Source of the DNA: Gemmatimonadaceae bacterium
Lineage (GTDB): Bacteria > Gemmatimonadota > Gemmatimonadetes > Gemmatimonadales > Gemmatimonadaceae
DNA: 64,000 bases
NCBI GenBank assembly: GCA_020846935.1
Contig: JADLCY010000013.1
Span: forward strand, 62,001 to 126,000
Direction: 5' to 3'
The notes beneath the pieces were generated by a model. The model was not told the DNA's origin and did not search any database. It saw only the letters and a list, made by a program, of their open reading frames with translations. Below, piece after piece: positions 8,529 to 59,107 of the stretch (its first letter is position 1; the number at the start of each line of letters is the position of its first letter). The translations under genes were made by a program, and so were the position numbers.

Positions 8529-10040
8529 TCAGGCGATCAGCCCTGCCGGCAGCCCCTTGTGCTTCTTCTGCTCGTAGAGCATCGCGTCGGCCGTCGAGAG
8601 CAGGTCCTCGATTGAGGGCGGCCTCGCGGGATCGAACGACGCGAGACCGACGCTGAAGGACAGGCGATAGGGGAACCCATCCCGGTCGTTCCGCTCACGC
8701 AATTCCGAGCGCAGGCGCTGAACGATCACGTCTTCGGTCCCGTGCACGATGTCGGCCGCGAGCACCACGAACTCGTCGCCACCGAGCCGCGCGATGATGT
8801 CGGAGTCCCGAAAGGTCTTCCGCAGGATCGACGCCGTGCGGCGCAGCGCCTCGTCGCCCTCGGCGTGGCCAAACGTGTCGTTGATCTCCTTGAAGTCATC
8901 CATGTCGACGAACAAGAGGAGCAGTTCGCGATGGCCGCGCCGCGCGAGCTTGAGTTGCTGCTGCGCCAGCGTGAGGAACCCTCGGCGATTGTAGAGCCCC
9001 GTGAGTTCGTCAATGAGCGACAGCGCCCGGAGGGCCTCCTCCTGCTGCTTGCGATCCGTCACATCGCGCGAGGTGATCGCCACGCCGTCGCGCAGCGGAA
9101 CGACCTGGTGGTGAATCCAGGCCGCGCGCACGTCAGGGGTGGTGACCTCGAACTCCTCCTCCAGCACGGTGCCATGGGTCATGACACTCACGTACTTGTC
9201 GAGAAAGCCGTTCACCCGGTTGGAGGGGATCAACTCGCAGAGGCGTTGTCCCACCACCTCATCGCGCCGCTTGCCCAGCAGCGTCTCGGCGCGACGGTTG
9301 ACGTCGACAAACTCGAAGTCGAGCACCTCGCCGCGCGCGTCATGCAGCGCGCGAAGCACGTAGAAGGCATCCAGGCTGCCGTCGGTGGCGGCGCGAAACT
9401 GCGCCTCGCTCTGCACCAGTGCGTCCTCCGCGGCGCGGTGACTGCTGAGCTCACGGTGCATGGTCAGGTACGCCACCGGGGCGAGGACGAGCAATACGCC
9501 GAGCGCGATGCGCAGCAGCAGGTCTCCGCTCCGGGCCGCGCCAGCCGCGTGCGAAGCGCGTGCGGTCAGATCCCGATCGTGGTGAGCGAGGACCTCGTCG
9601 GCGAGGGACAGGGTCGCGCGCACGCGTGGCGATGCCACGATGAGCGCCTCGCTGGCCGTCGATGTCGGTGTCCCAGCGATCTGATGGAGAGCCGCCGCCG
9701 ACGAGTCGATGGACGCCACGAGCCTCCGCAGCTCGCCCCAGTCCTTCGCATAGTCCGAAAGCTGGCGCGCTGCCGTTTCCGCGATGGCAATGTTCTCGTA
9801 CGCCTGGCCACGAAGCGTCGTGTCGGCGCGGGCCACCCAGGCCGCCCCGCCACGTTCGGCGCTCGACAGCGCCTGCACCGCCCGAGCAATCTGTGCGGCG
9901 ACGCGGCGCCCATCGTTCAGGCTCGCTGTCGTCGCCGCCAACTCCCTGGTGTTCGCGTATGACAACAGCCCTGCCCCCACCAGCAGGGCCAGGGCAACGA
10001 CGAACAACAGGCTGAGTTTTCGGCCGATCGTGACGCCCAT
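8529..10040 (-). CDS. Membrane diguanylate cyclase with PAS domain
   Basis: A 503-residue GGDEF protein predicted to make cyclic di-GMP. There is a membrane helix at about 9-30, a periplasmic four-helix-like sensor region, a second helix near 175-193, a PAS domain at about 205-330 (with SRDVTDRKQQE at its end) and a C-terminal GGDEF domain. The active-site GGDEF at 420-424 is intact, and RDSD five residues before it forms a classical inhibitory I-site. It is therefore probably active and product-inhibited. It is the first of two such enzymes in 4.5 kb. Confidence 0.9.
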   Translation of the reverse strand: MGVTIGRKLSLLFVVALALLVGAGLLSYANTRELAATTASLNDGRRVAAQIARAVQALSSAERGGAAWVARADTTLRGQAYENIAIAETAARQLSDYAKDWGELRRLVASIDSSAAALHQIAGTPTSTASEALIVASPRVRATLSLADEVLAHHDRDLTARASHAAGAARSGDLLLRIALGVLLVLAPVAYLTMHRELSSHRAAEDALVQSEAQFRAATDGSLDAFYVLRALHDARGEVLDFEFVDVNRRAETLLGKRRDEVVGQRLCELIPSNRVNGFLDKYVSVMTHGTVLEEEFEVTTPDVRAAWIHHQVVPLRDGVAITSRDVTDRKQQEEALRALSLIDELTGLYNRRGFLTLAQQQLKLARRGHRELLLLFVDMDDFKEINDTFGHAEGDEALRRTASILRKTFRDSDIIARLGGDEFVVLAADIVHGTEDVIVQRLRSELRERNDRDGFPYRLSFSVGLASFDPARPPSIEDLLSTADAMLYEQKKHKGLPAGLIA

Positions 10041-10144
10041 GCGAGTCCCACGCGTCCGGAAGAAATTGCCGGTCCTTCCTTACGAGACGCTCGAGCCCGG
10101 CGGGTGTCACCTGGCCGGCCCGGTACAACCTGCCGACGCGCGAC

Positions 10145-10933
10145 CTAGTCGACCCGACGGGACTGCGCGCCCAGTGGACGCGGCGGCGTAATCTCCTCGA
10201 TCGGCAGGACGGTTCGGCGCCGGGTCCGCGCCGGCAGTTCGACCTCGGGTTCAAGCGGCGCCGCATCGGCGAGCATGACCTCGGCAGTGCCCACCCGATC
10301 CCACTCGGAGGCCACGAGCTCGGGAGTGTGTTCGATGCGAAGACGACGCAAGCGCCGCCGGGCCTCGGCGTTCGCCTGGAAGGCGCTTCCGATGGGGGCG
10401 TCGGCGGGTCGCTCCCTCGCCTGGGTAACGAGCACTGACGCGATCCGGAATCCCGTGCGCAGAATCATCGCGAGTCCTGCATACGCGGCGAGGTCGGCAA
10501 CGTTGAACACGAGCCCGTGCGTCGCGCTCCAGTGCACAGCAATGAAGTCACCGACGCCGGCCGGCGGCGCGAGGAGCGAAACCAGATTACCCAGTGCGCC
10601 GCCGACGATCAGGCCGAGCGCGATCGGCGAGGCGGCATCAACACGCTCGAGATCCCGCGTGACGGGGATGACGAAGACGATCGCCGCCAGCGTGAGCGCC
10701 AGATTCAGCTGCCACGTGTAGGCACCGGCGGAGAGACCGAACGCGCCACCGTAGTTCTGCATCACGGCAAGCGACAGCCAGCTCGTGACGTTCAGCGCCT
10801 GTGACGACCAGAGCGCCGACGCGAGCGCCTTGGTCAGGAGATCTCCTGCCGCGACGAAGAGCGCGATACGCGAGAGACGAACGAGTGCCGGGTTCAGCGA
10901 CGTGGGGCGAGGACGCGTCAAATCTGCTCTCAC
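10145..10933 (-). CDS. LspA-like membrane protein lacking one catalytic Asp
   Basis: About 262 residues resembling lipoprotein signal peptidase (A8 aspartyl peptidase). Several landmarks match: GDLLTKA (31-36), NYGGAFGL (60-67), GALGN (112-116) and FNVAD (143-147), with four hydrophobic segments. However, the first catalytic aspartate of the NLID motif is replaced by Ser119 (GNLVS), while the second (Asp147) remains. A polar tail of about 90 residues, rich in Arg and Glu, is not typical of LspA. It may be a non-catalytic paralogue. The start is uncertain: I use GTG at 10933, with an ATG at 11053 also in frame. Confidence 0.7.
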   Translation of the reverse strand: MRADLTRPRPTSLNPALVRLSRIALFVAAGDLLTKALASALWSSQALNVTSWLSLAVMQNYGGAFGLSAGAYTWQLNLALTLAAIVFVIPVTRDLERVDAASPIALGLIVGGALGNLVSLLAPPAGVGDFIAVHWSATHGLVFNVADLAAYAGLAMILRTGFRIASVLVTQARERPADAPIGSAFQANAEARRRLRRLRIEHTPELVASEWDRVGTAEVMLADAAPLEPEVELPARTRRRTVLPIEEITPPRPLGAQSRRVD

Positions 10934-11211
10934 GGCGTAGAGAGTGGCGAGTGGGTTCGTGCGCCAGTCCGGCGAACCGGGCCTGGGAATTTCGGCGCGA
11001 CGGGTGGCGCACGAGTCCCACTCGAGCACCTCAAGGAGCAGAGGTTGTGCCATGGATCACGTGCCCGAGATGCCCGTGGCGAGGTCGTTTGACGGCCTGA
11101 TCGTGGCACCGTGTCAACAACGGGTCGCGATTCGCGTGCGCGCGCACGCAACGCTCCGGCGGTTCGTAACGGTCAGAATGCCGGAGGCAGCCGCTCGTAC
11201 CCGGAATGCAA
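10934..11211. other. Gene-free stretch upstream of the LspA-like gene
   Basis: Apart from the possible N-terminal extension of the LspA-like gene (alternative ATG at 11053), I see no convincing gene, promoter or RNA structure between the GTG at 10933 and the tRNA terminator. Confidence 0.4.
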
Positions 11212-52933: not shown

Positions 52934-54082
52934 TCATGGACGGATGGTGAGACCAACACTGAGCATCCAGGCGCGCTCGGAGAGTGACCCGGCGGCCTCG
53001 CGCGTGGCGCGCTGGAGCGCGAGGTCCATCGTGGCTCTCCCACCGGCGATCGGCGTGGAGGTGCCGCCGGAAACGATCCGCTCGCGCACGATCGCGCCGG
53101 ACACCGCGAACGGCAAGTCGCGCACACGATATCCCACGCTGTAGGTCCAACCGAGCGCGCGCCGCGAGCGCTGCGACGCGAAGTCTGCGCCGACCGCGTA
53201 CTCCCACACGTCGTTCCCGTCCGCCTGCTCGCTCCCGAGGCCGTTGATCCCCGACCATTCCGTGCGGTCCGCGGAGCCCATCAGGGAAACCCCGGGAATC
53301 GCATCAAAGCGAACGGCCACACCCAACCTGTTCGGAACGCTGGCCGAGGACCGCAGCGTGTCGGCCACGCGCAATCGCAGGTCGCCTCCCTGACGCACCG
53401 ACGCGGCCGCGGAGAACCACGTGACCGGCGCGACCACCACGCCGGCCGAGGCTGCAACGCCGCTGTAGGCCAGCGTGAGGTTGCGCAGCAGCGTCCCGTA
53501 GCGGAGGCTGTCATCAAACTGGCGCCGCAGCGTGAGGCGGTTCTCCCCGGTGATCAGGTGGAGCCCGGCTCCCATCGCGACGCGTCCGTTGAACGGCGCA
53601 AAGGCCAGCGACAGGCGCGTCTCGTTGAGCCCGCCCGATGATCGATTGCTCTCGGTGAACAGGACGCTGTCCGGGCCAAGCCGCTGCCCCGAACGGATCA
53701 CGGTCGCCCACGTGCGATCGAGCAACGAGTGTGAAGTGATTCCCAGCGCGAACCGGCTTTTCACCGGAAACAGAATGCCGATGGCGGCGAACCGTGGGGT
53801 CACGGTCCGGTCCCGCTGTGCCCCCTGCTCCAATTCGCGGAACTCCGGATCGTACTGGAAGAACACCCCGCGGCGCGAGCCGAGGATGATCGCCGCGGGA
53901 TTCCGAGCGGCGTGGTCGTCGAACTCCCCGGAAGCTCCGCCGGTCGCGAGCGATCGGGTGCTCAGTCCGCCTAACGGATATCCGAACCCCTGCCCGCCCA
54001 GGGTTCCCTGGGCCGCGACCGGATCGGTCATGGCGGCGCCGGCGACGGCGGCCACCGCGAGGGACGCGAGCAGACGAATCAT
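52934..54082 (-). CDS. Outer-membrane protein, FadL/PorV-like
   Basis: A 382-residue exported beta-rich protein. Signal peptide about 1-24 (ending VAAQG). The first mature residues (GFGYPLGGLSTRSLATGGASGEFDDHAARNPAAI) with an early Asn-Pro-Ala motif recall FadL/PorV-type barrels. Later sequence is alternating barrel-like strands. It overlaps the upstream lipoprotein gene by four bases. Ligand unknown. A TTA GGC pair holds a GCCTAACG copy. Confidence 0.75.
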   Translation of the reverse strand: MIRLLASLAVAAVAGAAMTDPVAAQGTLGGQGFGYPLGGLSTRSLATGGASGEFDDHAARNPAAIILGSRRGVFFQYDPEFRELEQGAQRDRTVTPRFAAIGILFPVKSRFALGITSHSLLDRTWATVIRSGQRLGPDSVLFTESNRSSGGLNETRLSLAFAPFNGRVAMGAGLHLITGENRLTLRRQFDDSLRYGTLLRNLTLAYSGVAASAGVVVAPVTWFSAAASVRQGGDLRLRVADTLRSSASVPNRLGVAVRFDAIPGVSLMGSADRTEWSGINGLGSEQADGNDVWEYAVGADFASQRSRRALGWTYSVGYRVRDLPFAVSGAIVRERIVSGGTSTPIAGGRATMDLALQRATREAAGSLSERAWMLSVGLTIRP

Positions 54083-55353
54083 GGAATGCCGAAGGTAGTG
54101 CGCAGTGAATAGCTCACGCGCAGGCGCGGACGCAGGGCCGCGTCGGCTCGCACCGAGTGGAACCGCACCTCATGCGCCGCCATGCCCTCGTCGCTCGATC
54201 GAATCACGATCGCCCGCTGCTGGCGAAACGGATTGTTCCCCGAGGTCCACTGGCGCAACGCGGCCGCCATCTCGATCTGACGCAGCCCGCTGTCGCGCGA
54301 CGCCAGCCGGAGCGTGTCCACCGGGAAGGTCGAGAGCAGCACCGACGCCCGCCCAACGTCCGCGACCTCTTCTCCAGCGAGGACGAGCTGCGGGAGCAGC
54401 AACGTACTGTCGGTGCTCGCGAACACGGGAATCGCTACCTGGGTCAGGAGCAGCGTGGCCCGGAGCACGGTAGCCGAGTCGAGAATTCTCGCCGGAACGT
54501 TGAATCGCAGAAAGGCACGCCGCGATGGCAGCCCGCCAATCGAGAGCACGTTGGCCGGAGGCAACGCGGGCGCCGCTGCAACGACTGTGTAGTCCAGCAG
54601 GTCGGTCTGCAGCTCGACGTTGTTGAGCGGAGAGTTCGAGCGCAACACGACCGCAATCTCGTCGATGCTGGTGTCCGCAGGCACCGGGTCGTACTTGAGG
54701 ATCGTCGGCGCGCCACCATCGAACGAGCCCAGGCTCAGCTGCGCGGACCTGGTGCTGGTGATGCGCAAGCCCACGCGCAGCCGGCCCGGACCTTTGATGC
54801 GCTGTAACAGCCTGGCGTTGTCGAAGTACACCCGGGCGGAATCCCGCACCTGGTTGGTGTCGAGCGTCGTTCCGCCAAGCAGCAGGTCCGGCCGGAAGCG
54901 CGCCAACACCGCGGCGGTGGCCGTGTCTGCGGCCGTCGTATCGACATCATACAGGTCGATGCGCACCGGCGCGCTCACCCGCGTCCGCGTCGGGTTCACC
55001 CGCAGCAGCAGGTAGGCGCTATCGATGGCGGTGATGGCCGAGTCGCCCCCGTTGCGCGTGATCCGCGTGGTGAGGGAGTCGAAGCGCAGCACGACGCGCG
55101 TATCGATCGTGTCCCCGCGTGCAGCGAGCAGCAGCGCCCCCTCGGCGCCGAGCGACGGGATTCCCGTCACGACCGTGTCGAAGACCACGGCGTCGATCAC
55201 CGTGTCGGTGACGACGACGTTCTGCCCCGGGCAGAGCACCGGACAGGCCGCGCCGCCGTCGAGATCCTCGCGGCACGCGGTCATGCCGAGCAGCGCGAGC
55301 CCCAGCAAGGCGAGGCGGGGGCTACGCAAGGCGTGTAACACGTCCTTCCACAT
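54079..55353 (-). CDS. Lipoprotein with DNRLRE-like beta-sandwich repeats
   Basis: A 424-residue lipoprotein. The signal peptide runs to lipobox LLGMTAC at about residue 27. The mature part seems to hold two similar beta-sandwich units. The first begins at about VVLRFDSL and the second at about [24 protein letters not shown], reminiscent of DNRLRE surface domains that bear carbohydrate binding or adhesion. The start overlaps the eutN end by about 31 bases. Its gene overlaps the outer-membrane barrel, so the two may form a surface pair. Confidence 0.72.
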
Positions 55354-55609
55354 CGAAACTATCGACAATGGCCATGATGACCGCATCTACCGGCCGATCC
55401 CTGGTAACGTTCGTGAGTCGTGCTGAACTTCCGCTGGCATACAGGACAACTTCACCGACCCCGGCCCCCACGCTGTCCACGGCGACCACATACCCACCCT
55501 CCTTCTCGAGCCCGGTCGTCACGTTCTCGACGATGAGCAGCTTGAGCGACTCGAGAGAAGGATCCTTGCGCGTGGACACGACGGTCCCGGACACACGACC
55601 GAGCTTCAT
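55322..55609 (-). CDS. EutN/CcmL-family microcompartment vertex protein
   Basis: A 95-residue BMC vertex (pentamer) protein. The family pattern is nearly complete: [47 protein letters not shown], then [11 protein letters not shown]. Such proteins cap the corners of polyhedral shells. No hexameric BMC shell gene (Pfam BMC domain), aldehyde dehydrogenase or encapsulation-tagged enzyme is in the window. Its neighbours are cytidine deaminase and phosphopentomutase upstream and a lipoprotein downstream. Some microcompartments handle sugar phosphates from nucleosides, so this could be one remote part of such a system or a repurposed solo pentamer. Confidence 0.93.
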
Positions 55610-56022
55610 CGGTGAGCGAGCGACACCGGAGTGAACGGGTGCGGCAGCAACTCGGTCAGGCGCCACGAGGCCCGGCGGCCATCGACGGTGACGCTCACCA
55701 CTTCGAGGTGCGGGGCAAATTCGACGAGTGCCTGGCGACACAGCCCGCACGGTGGCGTGGGCTCGGTAGCTTCGGTGGCCACCACCAACTGCGTGAACCG
55801 TCGCTGGCCCGCCGCGATCGCGGCACTCAGCGCCGACCGCTCCGCGCAGATTCCCGCCGGGTACGACGCATTTTCGACGTTGCATCCGTGATACTCGGTT
55901 CCGTCGTCCGCCACGAGCGTCGCGCCCACGCGAAACTGCGAGTACGGGGCGTACGCATGCTGCAGCACGTCGAACGCCGTCTGCGCACCCACCCGACCCG
56001 TCGGCGGCACGGAGGGCTTCAC
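55606..56022 (-). CDS. cdd: Cytidine deaminase
   Basis: Tetrameric-type cytidine deaminase of 138 residues, salvaging cytidine and deoxycytidine. Substrate and zinc motifs [35 protein letters not shown] and PCGLCRQAL are complete. The GTG start overlaps the deoB stop by four bases. The 3' end overlaps eutN by four. A longer upstream ORF (to 56079) is not family-like. Confidence 0.93.
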
Positions 56023-57185
56023 GTCAGCACGTCGGCGAGAAACGAGGTCCCACGCCCGCGAAAGCCAAGTCCGAACCACTCGGCGATCGTGGCTCCGACG
56101 TCGGAGAACGTCCTCCGCACCGGGAGGTGCACCGGGCGGACCCGCGGCCCCACCATCAACATCGGCACGCGCTCGCGAGCGTGGTCCGTGGACGGCGTGG
56201 TCGGATCGTTCCCGTGATCGGCGGTCAGAATGAGCAGGTCGTCCTCGCGGAGAAAAGCCAGCAGGTCCGGGAGCCCCGCGTCCAGTTCGCGGAGCGCCCG
56301 GTAGAACCCCGGAACGTCGTTTCGGTGCCCGTAGAGCTGGTCGAAATCTACAAGGTTGGCGAAGAGGAACCCACTCGCCCCGTCCGCCATCCAGGCCTGG
56401 ATGTGGTGGATACCCTCGGCGTTGCTGCGCGTATGGGTCGATGTGATGGACCGTCCGGCAAACAGGTCGTCGACCTTGCCGACGCCGATGCGGGCAATCC
56501 CGGCTGCGGCGAGGGCATCGAGCAGTGTTTCGCCCGCGGGCGCGATGGAGAAATCACGCCGGTTGGCCGTCCGCACCCACGCGCCCTGCGTCCCCCGAAA
56601 TGGCCGCGCGATGACGCGCGACGCGTCGTGCGGGGGGACCAGCATCCGCCGCGCGGCGGTGCATGCCGCATAGAGTTCATCGAGCGGCACGACGTCCTCG
56701 TGCGCGGCGAGCTGAAACACCGAGTCGGCCGAGGTATAGAGGATCCACGCACCCGTCGCCACGTGCTCGTCGGCGTGGCGCTCCAGAATCTCGGTGCCAC
56801 TTGCCGCCACGTTGCCGAGCACGCGACGCCCCGTTAGGCGTTCGAACTCCCGCACGACCTCGGCCGGAAATCCCGCGGGCCAGGTGGGAAACGGCCGGTC
56901 GAGGTGGACGCCGCACAATTCCCAGTGGCCCGTGGTGGAGTCCTTGCCCGCCGAAGCCGGCTCCAGGGCACAACGCGCTGCCGTGCCTGCGATCGGGTCC
57001 ACCCCGGGCAACGAGAGCAACGATCCTATCCCAAGCGCCTCCAGCGTCGGGAGCGAGAAGTCCGGCGTGTGTTCCGCGACGTGACCAAGCGTATTGCTGT
57101 CGGCGTCGCCGTAGCGGTCGGCATCATGCGCCGCGCCGATACCGACCCCGTCGAGCACCACGAGCGCAGCCCGTCTCACCGTCAA
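56019..57185 (-). CDS. deoB: Phosphopentomutase
   Basis: DeoB interconverts (deoxy)ribose-1- and -5-phosphate in nucleoside catabolism, 388 residues of the alkaline-phosphatase superfamily. Metal-site motifs: [19 protein letters not shown] near the start, the phosphorylated-Thr region KDSTTGHWE and [17 protein letters not shown] at the end. The start is TTG (or a GTG six bases on), overlapping the alr stop. Together with cdd it points to use of nucleosides as carbon source. Confidence 0.94.
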
Positions 57186-58270
57186 ACCGCAGTTCCCGGT
57201 GACGGCAGGTACACGCGTCGCGCCCGTAGCTTGAGTCCCACGAGCATCTCGTACGGCAGCAAGTCCACGGCGTCGCAGATCCGGTTGATATCCAGATGAT
57301 CGTCACCGTCGCGCCCAAGCAGGGTTGCCACATCCCCAACCGCGCACGGCACGTCCGTCACGTCGATCATCGTCATGTCCATCGTGACGCGGCCCACGAC
57401 GGGCGCCCGCGCGCCGGCAACGATTGCCTCTCCCCGTGAAGAGAAGAGTCGCCGGTACCCATCGGCATACCCGATCGCCAGCGTCGCAACGCGCCGGTCA
57501 CTCGGGGCTGTCCAGGTCGCGCCGTACGACACCGTTTCCCCCCGGCGCACGGTGTGGAGCGCCACCACGCGCGCCCGCAGATGCGCGACGGGTTCCGGTA
57601 CCATCTTCGACCCGGGCCCTCCGCCCACGCCGTAGAGGAACACCCCCGGGCGAACCATGTCCCATGGCGACGGGGCGTGCCGCTCGACGGCCGGCCCGTT
57701 CTCGCAGTGCACCACGCTCGGGCGACTTGGCATCGCCCGGATGGCGTCACGAAACCGCGCCAGCTGCTCCTGCAGCAAACGCTCCACATCCGGCGAGTGG
57801 AAATGCGTGAATGCACCTTCGGGCGGACTCGATGCGAGCAGCGCGGAGAGCTCGCCGATCCGCCACCACTCGATGCCGGAGCGGTGCATTCCGGTGTCAA
57901 TCGCCAGGTGCCACGGGCCGCCACCGGCCGCGATCCACGCCGTGAGGGATTCCGCGGAGCCGAGGGTTGGCGTGACGCCCAGCTCTCGCGCCTCTCGATA
58001 CTCCGCAGGCAGGAGTGGCGTGAAGACCAGCACGCGCCGACGAATGCCAGCGCATCGAAGCTCGCGGGCCTCGTCGAGCGTGCCGACACCATGGCCCCAG
58101 GGGTCCAGGCCTTCGAGCGCCCGACACACCTCGACCGCTCCCAATCCGTAGGCGTCGCCCTTGACCATCGGCAGCAGGGGCTTGCCGGAGCGTTGGCGCA
58201 TCGCACTGGCGTTTCGGACGAGGGCGGCGAGATCGACCTCGACCCAGCACCGCTGTGCATGCGAATCCAT
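57182..58270 (-). CDS. alr: Alanine racemase
   Basis: PLP-dependent alanine racemase, 362 residues, making D-alanine for peptidoglycan. Lys37 in VKGDAYGLG is the PLP lysine, and the catalytic Tyr lies in SYGATWTAP. GRVTMDMTMIDVTD is the C-terminal family block. It heads the second overlapping gene string (alr to miaB). Its promoter appears to face that of mazG. Confidence 0.94.
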   Translation of the reverse strand: MDSHAQRCWVEVDLAALVRNASAMRQRSGKPLLPMVKGDAYGLGAVEVCRALEGLDPWGHGVGTLDEARELRCAGIRRRVLVFTPLLPAEYREARELGVTPTLGSAESLTAWIAAGGGPWHLAIDTGMHRSGIEWWRIGELSALLASSPPEGAFTHFHSPDVERLLQEQLARFRDAIRAMPSRPSVVHCENGPAVERHAPSPWDMVRPGVFLYGVGGGPGSKMVPEPVAHLRARVVALHTVRRGETVSYGATWTAPSDRRVATLAIGYADGYRRLFSSRGEAIVAGARAPVVGRVTMDMTMIDVTDVPCAVGDVATLLGRDGDDHLDINRICDAVDLLPYEMLVGLKLRARRVYLPSPGTAV

Positions 58271-58299: not shown

Positions 58300-58324
58300 A
58301 TCCGACCGGAGGTGATCAATGCAA
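58295..58324 (-). promoter_or_regulatory. Promoter of the alr operon, overlapping mazG promoter
   Basis: On the minus strand, -35 TTGCAT (58324-58319), an 18-base spacer and -10 TATACT (58300-58295). The -10 box shares five bases with the mazG -10 on the other strand, and the -35 covers the mazG start codon. Only one of the two promoters could be occupied at a time. Confidence 0.5.
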
Positions 58325-59107
58325 CCCAAGGCCACGCTTGAAGATACGCTCTCCTTGATGAGGGATCTCCGAGCCCGCTGCGAGTGGGATGCGGCCCAGA
58401 CCCACGCAAGCCTGCGCCCATATCTCGTCGAGGAGGCGCATGAGCTCGACGACGCCATCCGGGATGAGAGCGATGCGCACATCCGCGAGGAGTTGGGCGA
58501 TGTGCTCCTTCAGGTGCTCTTCCATTCCGTGGTCGCCGAGGAGCGTGGCGCCTTTGACATCGGCGACGTGGCCGGCGGTCTGATCGACAAGATGCACCGC
58601 CGACATCCTCACCTGTACGGCGATGGGGTTCGCGTGGGCTGGGAGCAGCTCAAAGCCCACAGCCGGCCGTCGATCGAACACGGACTGGCATCGGGACTGC
58701 CGTCGTTGCACCGCGCCCATCGTCTGCAGGATCGCGCCGCGGGCGTCGGGTTCGACTGGGACGATATCGAGGGCCCTACTGAGAAGGTCGCCGAAGAGCT
58801 GGCCGAAGTACGCGAGCATCTCGGCGACGCGCGGCCTCGTGGCGACGGCCATGCCGCTCCCGCAGCGGACGAGCGGCACGCGGCCCTGGAGGGGGAACTC
58901 GGCGACCTGCTGTTTGCCGTGGTGAACCTGTGTCGAAAGGCGGGAGTCCACGCGAGCATTGCCCTGGATCGAGCCAACGCCAAGTTCGCCCGCCGGTTCA
59001 CCGCGATCGAGCGACTTGCCGAGGCCCGTGGGATTGACGTGAAGACCGCTGGCCTTGCCGTGCTCGATGGACTCTGGGACGAGGTGAAGCTGATCGAGCG
59101 CGGCTGA
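58319..59107 (+). CDS. mazG: Nucleoside triphosphate pyrophosphohydrolase MazG
   Basis: Full-length two-domain MazG, 262 residues (the E. coli protein has 263), hydrolysing NTPs to NMP and pyrophosphate. The N-terminal domain has EEAHELDDAI and REELGDVLLQVLFHSVVAEE, and the C-terminal domain has ELGDLLFAVVNLCRKAG. It also contains GVGFDWDD between the domains, as in E. coli. An excellent Shine-Dalgarno GGAGGTGATC lies three bases before the ATG. It converges with the DinB-like gene, separated by six bases. Confidence 0.94.
   Translation: MQPKATLEDTLSLMRDLRARCEWDAAQTHASLRPYLVEEAHELDDAIRDESDAHIREELGDVLLQVLFHSVVAEERGAFDIGDVAGGLIDKMHRRHPHLYGDGVRVGWEQLKAHSRPSIEHGLASGLPSLHRAHRLQDRAAGVGFDWDDIEGPTEKVAEELAEVREHLGDARPRGDGHAAPAADERHAALEGELGDLLFAVVNLCRKAGVHASIALDRANAKFARRFTAIERLAEARGIDVKTAGLAVLDGLWDEVKLIERG

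What the first reader, a model, noticed from the sequence alone, without database searches (positions are those of the whole stretch)
55322..57185. Single microcompartment vertex gene inside a nucleoside-salvage operon
A well-conserved EutN/CcmL gene is wedged, with four-base overlaps, behind deoB and cdd and ahead of a lipoprotein. No hexameric shell protein or signature enzyme is nearby. Known BMCs place shell genes together, and some process sugar phosphates from nucleosides. This may be a satellite locus supplying corners to shells coded elsewhere, or a solo pentamer with a new job tied to deoxyribose-phosphate metabolism.
Basis: partly seen in the sequence, partly recalled or inferred. 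Interest (0 to 1): 0.62.

Follow-up and report, generated by a model that had tools for sequence, protein, structure and literature searches.

The report
Vertex gene of a scattered microcompartment
A gene for the corner piece of a bacterial protein organelle sits inside a nucleoside-recycling operon; the rest of the organelle is encoded at distant sites, and together they look like a compartment that burns the deoxyribose of DNA, which gives a testable job to a class of scattered microcompartments whose function was unknown.

Summary
The window (Gemmatimonadota, Gemmatimonadaceae) carries a genuine BMC-P/EutN gene (55322-55609, -) overlapping cdd by ATGA, behind deoB and alr; no other shell gene is in the window. 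The genome (G000) holds the rest: two BMC-H genes with an acetaldehyde-type AldDH and a PduL 109 kb away on the same contig, and two more BMC-P genes followed by the genome's only deoC on another contig. DeoC, PduL and AldDH carry terminal extensions of encapsulation-peptide type. All three loci are conserved across the order, give the same tree as the host operon, and occur together; EutN and BMC-H co-occur in 21 of the 27 genomes (of 298) that have either. The same operon without eutN is widespread, and one genome keeps a deleted eutN remnant at the site. In other phyla the closest relatives of this protein sit with BMC-H and AldDH, often with deoC and rpiB. Best reading: a satellite gene supplying the main vertex of a split metabolosome for deoxyribose 5-phosphate, encoded with enzymes that make that substrate. 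It resembles published SPU, HO and FRAG types; FRAG BMCs had no assigned function. The solo-pentamer idea is rejected.

The parts
55322..55609 (-). eutN-type BMC-P vertex gene (P1), 95 aa; start ATG overlaps the cdd stop (ATGA)
   Evidence: PF03319 104 bits; 55/91 identical to H. ochraceum BMC-P 5v74; AlphaFold2 model matches BMC pentamer subunits at Z about 12; dN 0.06 against 0.24-0.31 for the operon's other genes in G000-G155
55606..56022 (-). cdd, cytidine/deoxycytidine deaminase, GTG start overlapping the deoB stop
   Evidence: PF00383; TIGR01354 135.5 bits over cut-off
56019..57185 (-). deoB, phosphopentomutase (deoxyribose 1-P to 5-P), TTG start overlapping the alr stop
   Evidence: TIGR01696 409 bits over cut-off
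57182..58270 (-). alr, alanine racemase, first gene of the operon
   Evidence: TIGR00492 232.8 bits over cut-off; order-wide conserved position
54079..55353 (-). lipoprotein-like gene after eutN (start uncertain: ATG 55353, or TTG 55329)
   Evidence: no Pfam match; conserved in place with or without eutN
52934..54082 (-). last gene of the conserved block, outer-membrane-like protein
   Evidence: no Pfam match; conserved in place
58319..59107 (+). mazG-like gene, divergent; marks the 5' border of the operon
   Evidence: conserved divergent neighbour in BMC-positive and BMC-negative genomes; name from sequence only, not family-tested

Best explanation
The gene encodes the principal pentameric vertex of a real bacterial microcompartment whose genes are split over at least three unlinked loci: (A) alr-deoB-cdd-P1 in the window; (B) P2-P3-deoC on contig C10; (C) H1-H2-AldDH-PduL on C13, 109 kb from A. 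Proposed mechanism: nucleoside phosphorylases and Cdd break down deoxynucleosides, and DeoB in the cytosol makes deoxyribose 5-phosphate. [quoted passage not shown] Encapsulated AldDH and PduL turn the volatile, toxic acetaldehyde into acetyl-CoA and acetyl-phosphate while recycling CoA inside the shell. Making the vertex from the same mRNA as DeoB and Cdd would tie shell building to supply of the substrate. Shown by sequence: the genes, their enzyme families, and their coordinated conservation, co-inheritance and loss. Inferred: encapsulation, assembly of the three loci's products into one shell, the flux, and any regulatory meaning of the operon.
For: Whole-genome inventory: exactly 3 EutN, 2 BMC domains, 1 DeoC-family hit. 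In 298 phylum genomes EutN is in 25, BMC-H in 23, both in 21 (Fisher p about 4e-26; relatedness not corrected). EutN-positive genomes nearly always hold three copies. Three conserved loci: A, B in 14 genomes, C in 12 genomes. For 10 genomes an 8-protein BMC alignment from the three loci and a 6-protein alignment of the operon neighbourhood give the same topology. In compact loci of the same phylum and of others, the P1 homologue sits with BMC-H, AldDH and often deoC and rpiB. The operon exists without eutN in 19 genomes examined; G047 keeps a deleted P1 remnant exactly between cdd and the lipoprotein gene. DeoC extension MSSDLKALARQIAHELAE... present in BMC-positive genomes and absent from BMC-negative G199, G104, G107; PduL N-terminal and AldDH C-terminal extensions. 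AldDH is best matched by acetylating acetaldehyde dehydrogenase TIGR02518, 557 bits (below its cut-off of 620). Pyrimidine- and purine-nucleoside phosphorylase families are present. Purifying selection on P1, H1, H2. deoB also precedes two BMC-P genes in an Ignavibacteriales contig.
Against: No experiment. Shell proteins of the three loci have not been shown to assemble together. BMC-negative relatives keep alr-deoB-cdd, so the nucleoside operon does not need the shell, and P1's place may be a historical accident. No BMC-T is found in G000. Acetate kinase is missing in 8 of 10 BMC-positive genomes tested, so the fate of acetyl-phosphate is open; PTA-domain proteins exist. EP-like amphipathicity exceeds shuffles for some termini only (AldDH of G185 and G015 and DeoC of G185 do not stand out). 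No shared upstream motif links the three loci. Four EutN-positive genomes lack BMC-H hits, all draft assemblies.
Confidence: 0.78

Rival explanations
1. P1 is the vertex of the split microcompartment, but its place in the nucleoside operon has no functional meaning: it landed behind cdd, is expressed constitutively, and the link to deoB and cdd is incidental.
For: The operon carries unrelated genes (alr, lipoprotein, membrane protein) and is order-wide without eutN. No shared regulatory motif with loci B and C was found.
Against: deoB also lies just upstream of a BMC-P pair in an Ignavibacteriales contig; pynp, pnp and cdd lie near SPU-type loci in two Chloroflexi contigs (L194, L208); the position is kept across several families despite repeated loss. 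The substrate link also rests on deoC at locus B, independent of A.
Confidence: 0.3
2. The shell is real but processes acetaldehyde (or another aldehyde) from another source; DeoC is soluble and merely co-located with P2-P3.
For: The AldDH differs from the AldDH of compact SPU-type loci (about 30% identical) and is EutE/AdhE-like.
Against: DeoC's extra N-terminal stretch is found in BMC-positive genomes and absent in three BMC-negative relatives; deoC is tied to P2-P3 in 14 genomes; no other aldehyde-generating signature enzyme lies at loci A, B or C.
Confidence: 0.12
3. Solo pentamer with a new job: P1 forms free pentamers acting in deoxyribose-phosphate metabolism, independent of any shell.
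For: No other shell gene within the window; G037, G260, G271 and G009 have EutN without a BMC-H hit.
Against: All four are drafts of 210-600 contigs, and G037 and G271 hold the full P1 plus P2-P3-deoC set; strict co-occurrence of shell genes and their joint absence in BMC-negative relatives.
Confidence: 0.04
4. The shell genes are decaying leftovers with no function in this genome.
For: Repeated losses in the order; remnants in G047 and G006.
Against: P1 and BMC-H are among the most constrained genes compared (dN 0.06 and 0.012 at dS about 1); all frames are open.
Confidence: 0.03

Closest known systems
FRAG BMCs (Sutter et al. 2021, PMC8217296)
   Same: Shell genes spread over several genomic places, a BMC-P triplet, reported from Gemmatimonadetes and Ignavibacteriae
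   Different: FRAG types are described as mostly remote from known enzymes and of unknown function; here all three loci carry enzymes, including deoC, AldDH and PduL, and one sits in a nucleoside operon. Their supplementary locus tables could not be checked
SPU metabolosomes (Axen 2014 PMC4207490; Sutter 2021 PMC8217296)
   Same: DeoC aldolase, AldDH, PduL, BMC-P; proposed use of DNA-derived sugar phosphates
   Different: Not one locus; rpiB is elsewhere; AldDH of another kind; no BMC-T found in G000
HO BMC of Haliangium ochraceum, type I
   Same: Satellite of two BMC-P genes plus an aldolase (PMC8217296); P1 is 60% identical to the HO vertex, and BMC-H matches HO-5815 among others
   Different: In HO-like loci P1 sits with BMC-H, AldDH and BMC-T; here P1 lies in a nucleoside operon
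Beta-carboxysome satellite loci (ccmK3/K4)
   Same: Shell genes kept away from the main locus, proposed to allow separate regulation (PMC5853843 abstract; PMC8217296)
   Different: There the satellites are hexamers proposed to tune permeability; here it is a vertex, linked to the substrate pathway
DeoC A-domain encapsulin operons (PMC8346489)
   Same: A compartment-type protein paired with DeoC, proposed for nucleoside use
   Different: Unrelated HK97-type protein in archaea; analogy only

Membership tests
BMC-P / EutN-CcmL (PF03319) | PF03319 domain over the curated cut-off | tested here: met
   104 bits against 25
BMC-P / EutN-CcmL (PF03319) | Fold of BMC pentamer subunits | tested here: met
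   AF2 model pLDDT 84.5; top 16 rows are BMC vertex proteins, Z 6.9-12.0 (5v74: Z 11.9, rmsd 2.7, 92 aligned), unrelated rows at 6.9 and below
BMC-P / EutN-CcmL (PF03319) | Assembles as a pentamer and caps a shell | not testable with these tools
   no complex prediction or experiment
SPU BMC | DeoC-type aldolase encoded with shell genes | tested here: met
   P2-P3-deoC, only deoC of the genome, TIGR00126 248 bits
SPU BMC | RpiB encoded in the shell locus | tested here: not met
   RpiB genes at C10:161457 and C11:61459, away from shell genes; the former has an N-terminal module like that at the PduL C-terminus
SPU BMC | Main locus with BMC-H and BMC-P together | tested here: not met
SPU BMC | AldDH of the SPU branch | tested here: inconclusive
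   about 30% identity to AldDH of compact SPU-type loci, which are 50-66% identical among phyla; no AldDH tree built
FRAG BMC | Shell genes at several genomic places | tested here: met
   three loci
FRAG BMC | BMC-P triplet | tested here: met
   three EutN of distinct types, conserved in most EutN-positive genomes
FRAG BMC | Shell-protein composition (HMM colours) of FRAG1-7 | not testable with these tools
   the colour HMMs are not on hand
HO BMC | Satellite of two BMC-P plus aldolase (type I) | tested here: met
   definition from PMC8217296
HO BMC | Main locus with BMC-H, BMC-P, AldDH and BMC-T | tested here: not met
   only two single-domain BMC-H in G000, P1 apart

The most novel reading that the evidence does not exclude
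Shell closure is wired to nucleoside catabolism: the most conserved vertex protein is made only together with DeoB and Cdd, translationally coupled through the ATGA overlap, so that shells are sealed when deoxyribose 5-phosphate is being produced. This would be an organelle assembled on demand from three unlinked operons, with the corner piece as the switch.
Probability: 0.2. Interest if true: 0.75.

Novelty: new variant of a known kind. Interest (0 to 1): 0.57.

Why it matters
The 2021 BMC catalogue lists FRAG compartments, among them those of Gemmatimonadetes, as scattered and functionally cryptic, and hopes that some correlate will reveal their job. Here genome context at all three loci points to one pathway, deoxynucleoside to deoxyribose 5-phosphate to acetyl-CoA, in a form that can be tested by growth, proteomics and heterologous expression. 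It also offers a natural case of a shell split into unlinked loci that are inherited and lost together, useful for studying how organelle parts stay matched without sharing an operon.

Tried and rejected
Shared regulatory motif upstream of alr, P2 and H1 in six genomes: nothing above shuffled sequence; only locus-specific conserved elements (TATACTACC before alr, CTTTACAAA...GGGAGCAC before H1). Consensus promoter and terminator scan of the operon: no more than chance. RpiB as a locus member: not near shell genes. Acetate kinase as the outlet for acetyl-phosphate: absent in most genomes. A sign test for correlated loss on independent pairs: all in the expected direction but too few pairs (3-5) for significance, and BMC-negative rows had been picked for lacking EutN. 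Searching BMC-negative operons for further eutN remnants: only G047 is convincing. Literature searches found no paper in the held library that assigns a function to FRAG BMCs or links deoB to a BMC.

Full report
WHAT IS THERE. The window carries, on the minus strand, alr (57182-58270), deoB (56019-57185), cdd (55606-56022), a 95-residue EutN/CcmL-type gene (55322-55609), a lipoprotein-like gene and a membrane-protein-like gene, with a mazG-like gene divergent at 58319. The first three junctions are start-stop overlaps (TTGA, GTGA, ATGA). The ORF caller's longer frame for eutN (from 55885) runs back through cdd in another reading frame; the start at 55609 gives the family's standard N-terminus. 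Relatives found by a named scan are Gemmatimonadetes/Gemmatimonadaceae MAGs, which places the organism.

THE REST OF THE ORGANELLE. The genome (15 contigs, 4.52 Mb, rated 100% complete) has exactly three EutN genes and two BMC domains. Two EutN genes (P2, P3; C10:58667-59253) are followed directly by the only deoC of the genome. The two BMC domains are separate single-domain genes in different frames (H1, H2; C13:7677-8205), followed by a CoA-acylating aldehyde dehydrogenase and a PduL-type phosphotransacylase. H1-H2 and the window's P1 lie 109 kb apart on one contig.

CONSERVATION. In 298 genomes of the phylum EutN occurs in 25 and BMC-H in 23, together in 21. The four EutN-only genomes are drafts. 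Locus A (with P1) is conserved in 12 genomes with deoB and in three more without deoB beside it; locus B (P2-P3-deoC) in 14; locus C (H1-H2-AldDH-PduL, between lpxH-like and ybgC-like genes) in 12. The same operon A without eutN is found in 19 genomes examined, 17 without any BMC hit and two with a compact BMC elsewhere, so eutN is the variable element. In G047 a shortened remnant of P1 (MKLGR..., ASVGADVGEVILYTNG, VDSFDIEGRSTRLA) lies exactly in the cdd-lipoprotein gap; its HMM scores are low (E 0.0035 and 0.013 in a small search) but position and order fit. G006 keeps part of P3 beside deoC.

INHERITANCE. For ten genomes a concatenate of the eight BMC proteins and one of six operon-neighbourhood proteins gave identical topologies with support 91-100. 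The three loci have therefore most likely travelled together vertically, with several losses (at least six changes on the neighbourhood tree; direction inferred from the remnants and the nested BMC-negative genomes). P1 sequences of operon A can form one clade (AU p 0.74); 95 columns do not prove it. P1 is under strong purifying selection (dN 0.06, dS about 1.4 in G000-G155), while its operon neighbours have dN 0.24-0.31.

CARGO. DeoC starts with an amphipathic stretch and a linker before the catalytic core in BMC-positive genomes; DeoC of BMC-negative G199, G104 and G107 begins at or near the core. G225, with no shell gene found, keeps an extension. PduL has a like N-terminal stretch and AldDH a like C-terminal one. 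Hydrophobic moments exceed shuffles clearly for some and not for others, so encapsulation is inferred, not shown. Cdd, DeoB and Alr have no such extension. A second possible cargo protein, RpiB at C10:161457, has an N-terminal module resembling the C-terminus of PduL (local score 93, best of 2000 shuffles 55); a related module lies in RpiB of some SPU-type loci.

COMPARISON. In other phyla the closest relatives of P1 sit mostly in rpiB-deoC-H-P1-AldDH-BMC-T-P2-P3 loci (SPU type) or the same without rpiB-deoC (HO-like); in this scan only Gemmatimonadota show the alr/deoB/cdd context. An Ignavibacteriales contig has deoB, a PIN-like gene and two BMC-P genes. P1 is 55/91 identical to the HO vertex 5v74, and its model aligns with BMC vertex proteins. 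The literature names FRAG (scattered shell genes, P triplet, Gemmatimonadetes, unknown function), SPU (DeoC plus RpiB) and HO with a two-BMC-P-plus-aldolase satellite. The present system fails tested features of SPU and HO, fits the tested features of FRAG, and works like SPU.

VERDICT. The finding is real and its first interpretation is right: a satellite vertex gene for a shell coded elsewhere, with a coherent link to deoxyribose phosphate. What is new is the functional reading of a scattered BMC and the fixed place of its main vertex gene in a nucleoside operon. Whether that place matters for regulation is open.

Noticed in passing
L228:944-3233 (Ignavibacteriales MAG contig JALWSN010000535): deoB, a PIN-like gene and two BMC-P genes in a row, with no other shell gene detected on the 11.8 kb contig: a second deoB-BMC-P link, in another phylum
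   Followed up: partly
L139:4601-4850 - (G047): Internally deleted remnant of the vertex gene between cdd and the lipoprotein gene
   Followed up: yes
L124:6165-6272 - (G006): Fragment of a P3-type BMC-P beside deoC in a genome without intact EutN
   Followed up: no
L163:3455-4069 - (G000 C10) and L006:4924-5964 -: RpiB N-terminus and PduL C-terminus share a short module (ITE..V..A..G....GA.(V/L)TP.ARD.AR.LGI); a stand-alone ORF with a like module lies in the BMC-H locus of G096 (L116:10624-10947)
   Followed up: partly
L006:9840-9932 - and 10019-10987 -: Selenocysteine tRNA beside a selD-like gene about 1.6 kb from the BMC-H locus
   Followed up: no
L123 (G225): DeoC keeps an EP-like N-terminal stretch although no shell gene was found in this draft genome
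   Followed up: no
ten BMC-positive genomes: Acetate kinase is missing in 8 of 10 although PduL should make acetyl-phosphate
   Followed up: partly
L118:8899-9411 - (G103): An extra tandem BMC-T-like gene, apart from the other shell loci
   Followed up: no
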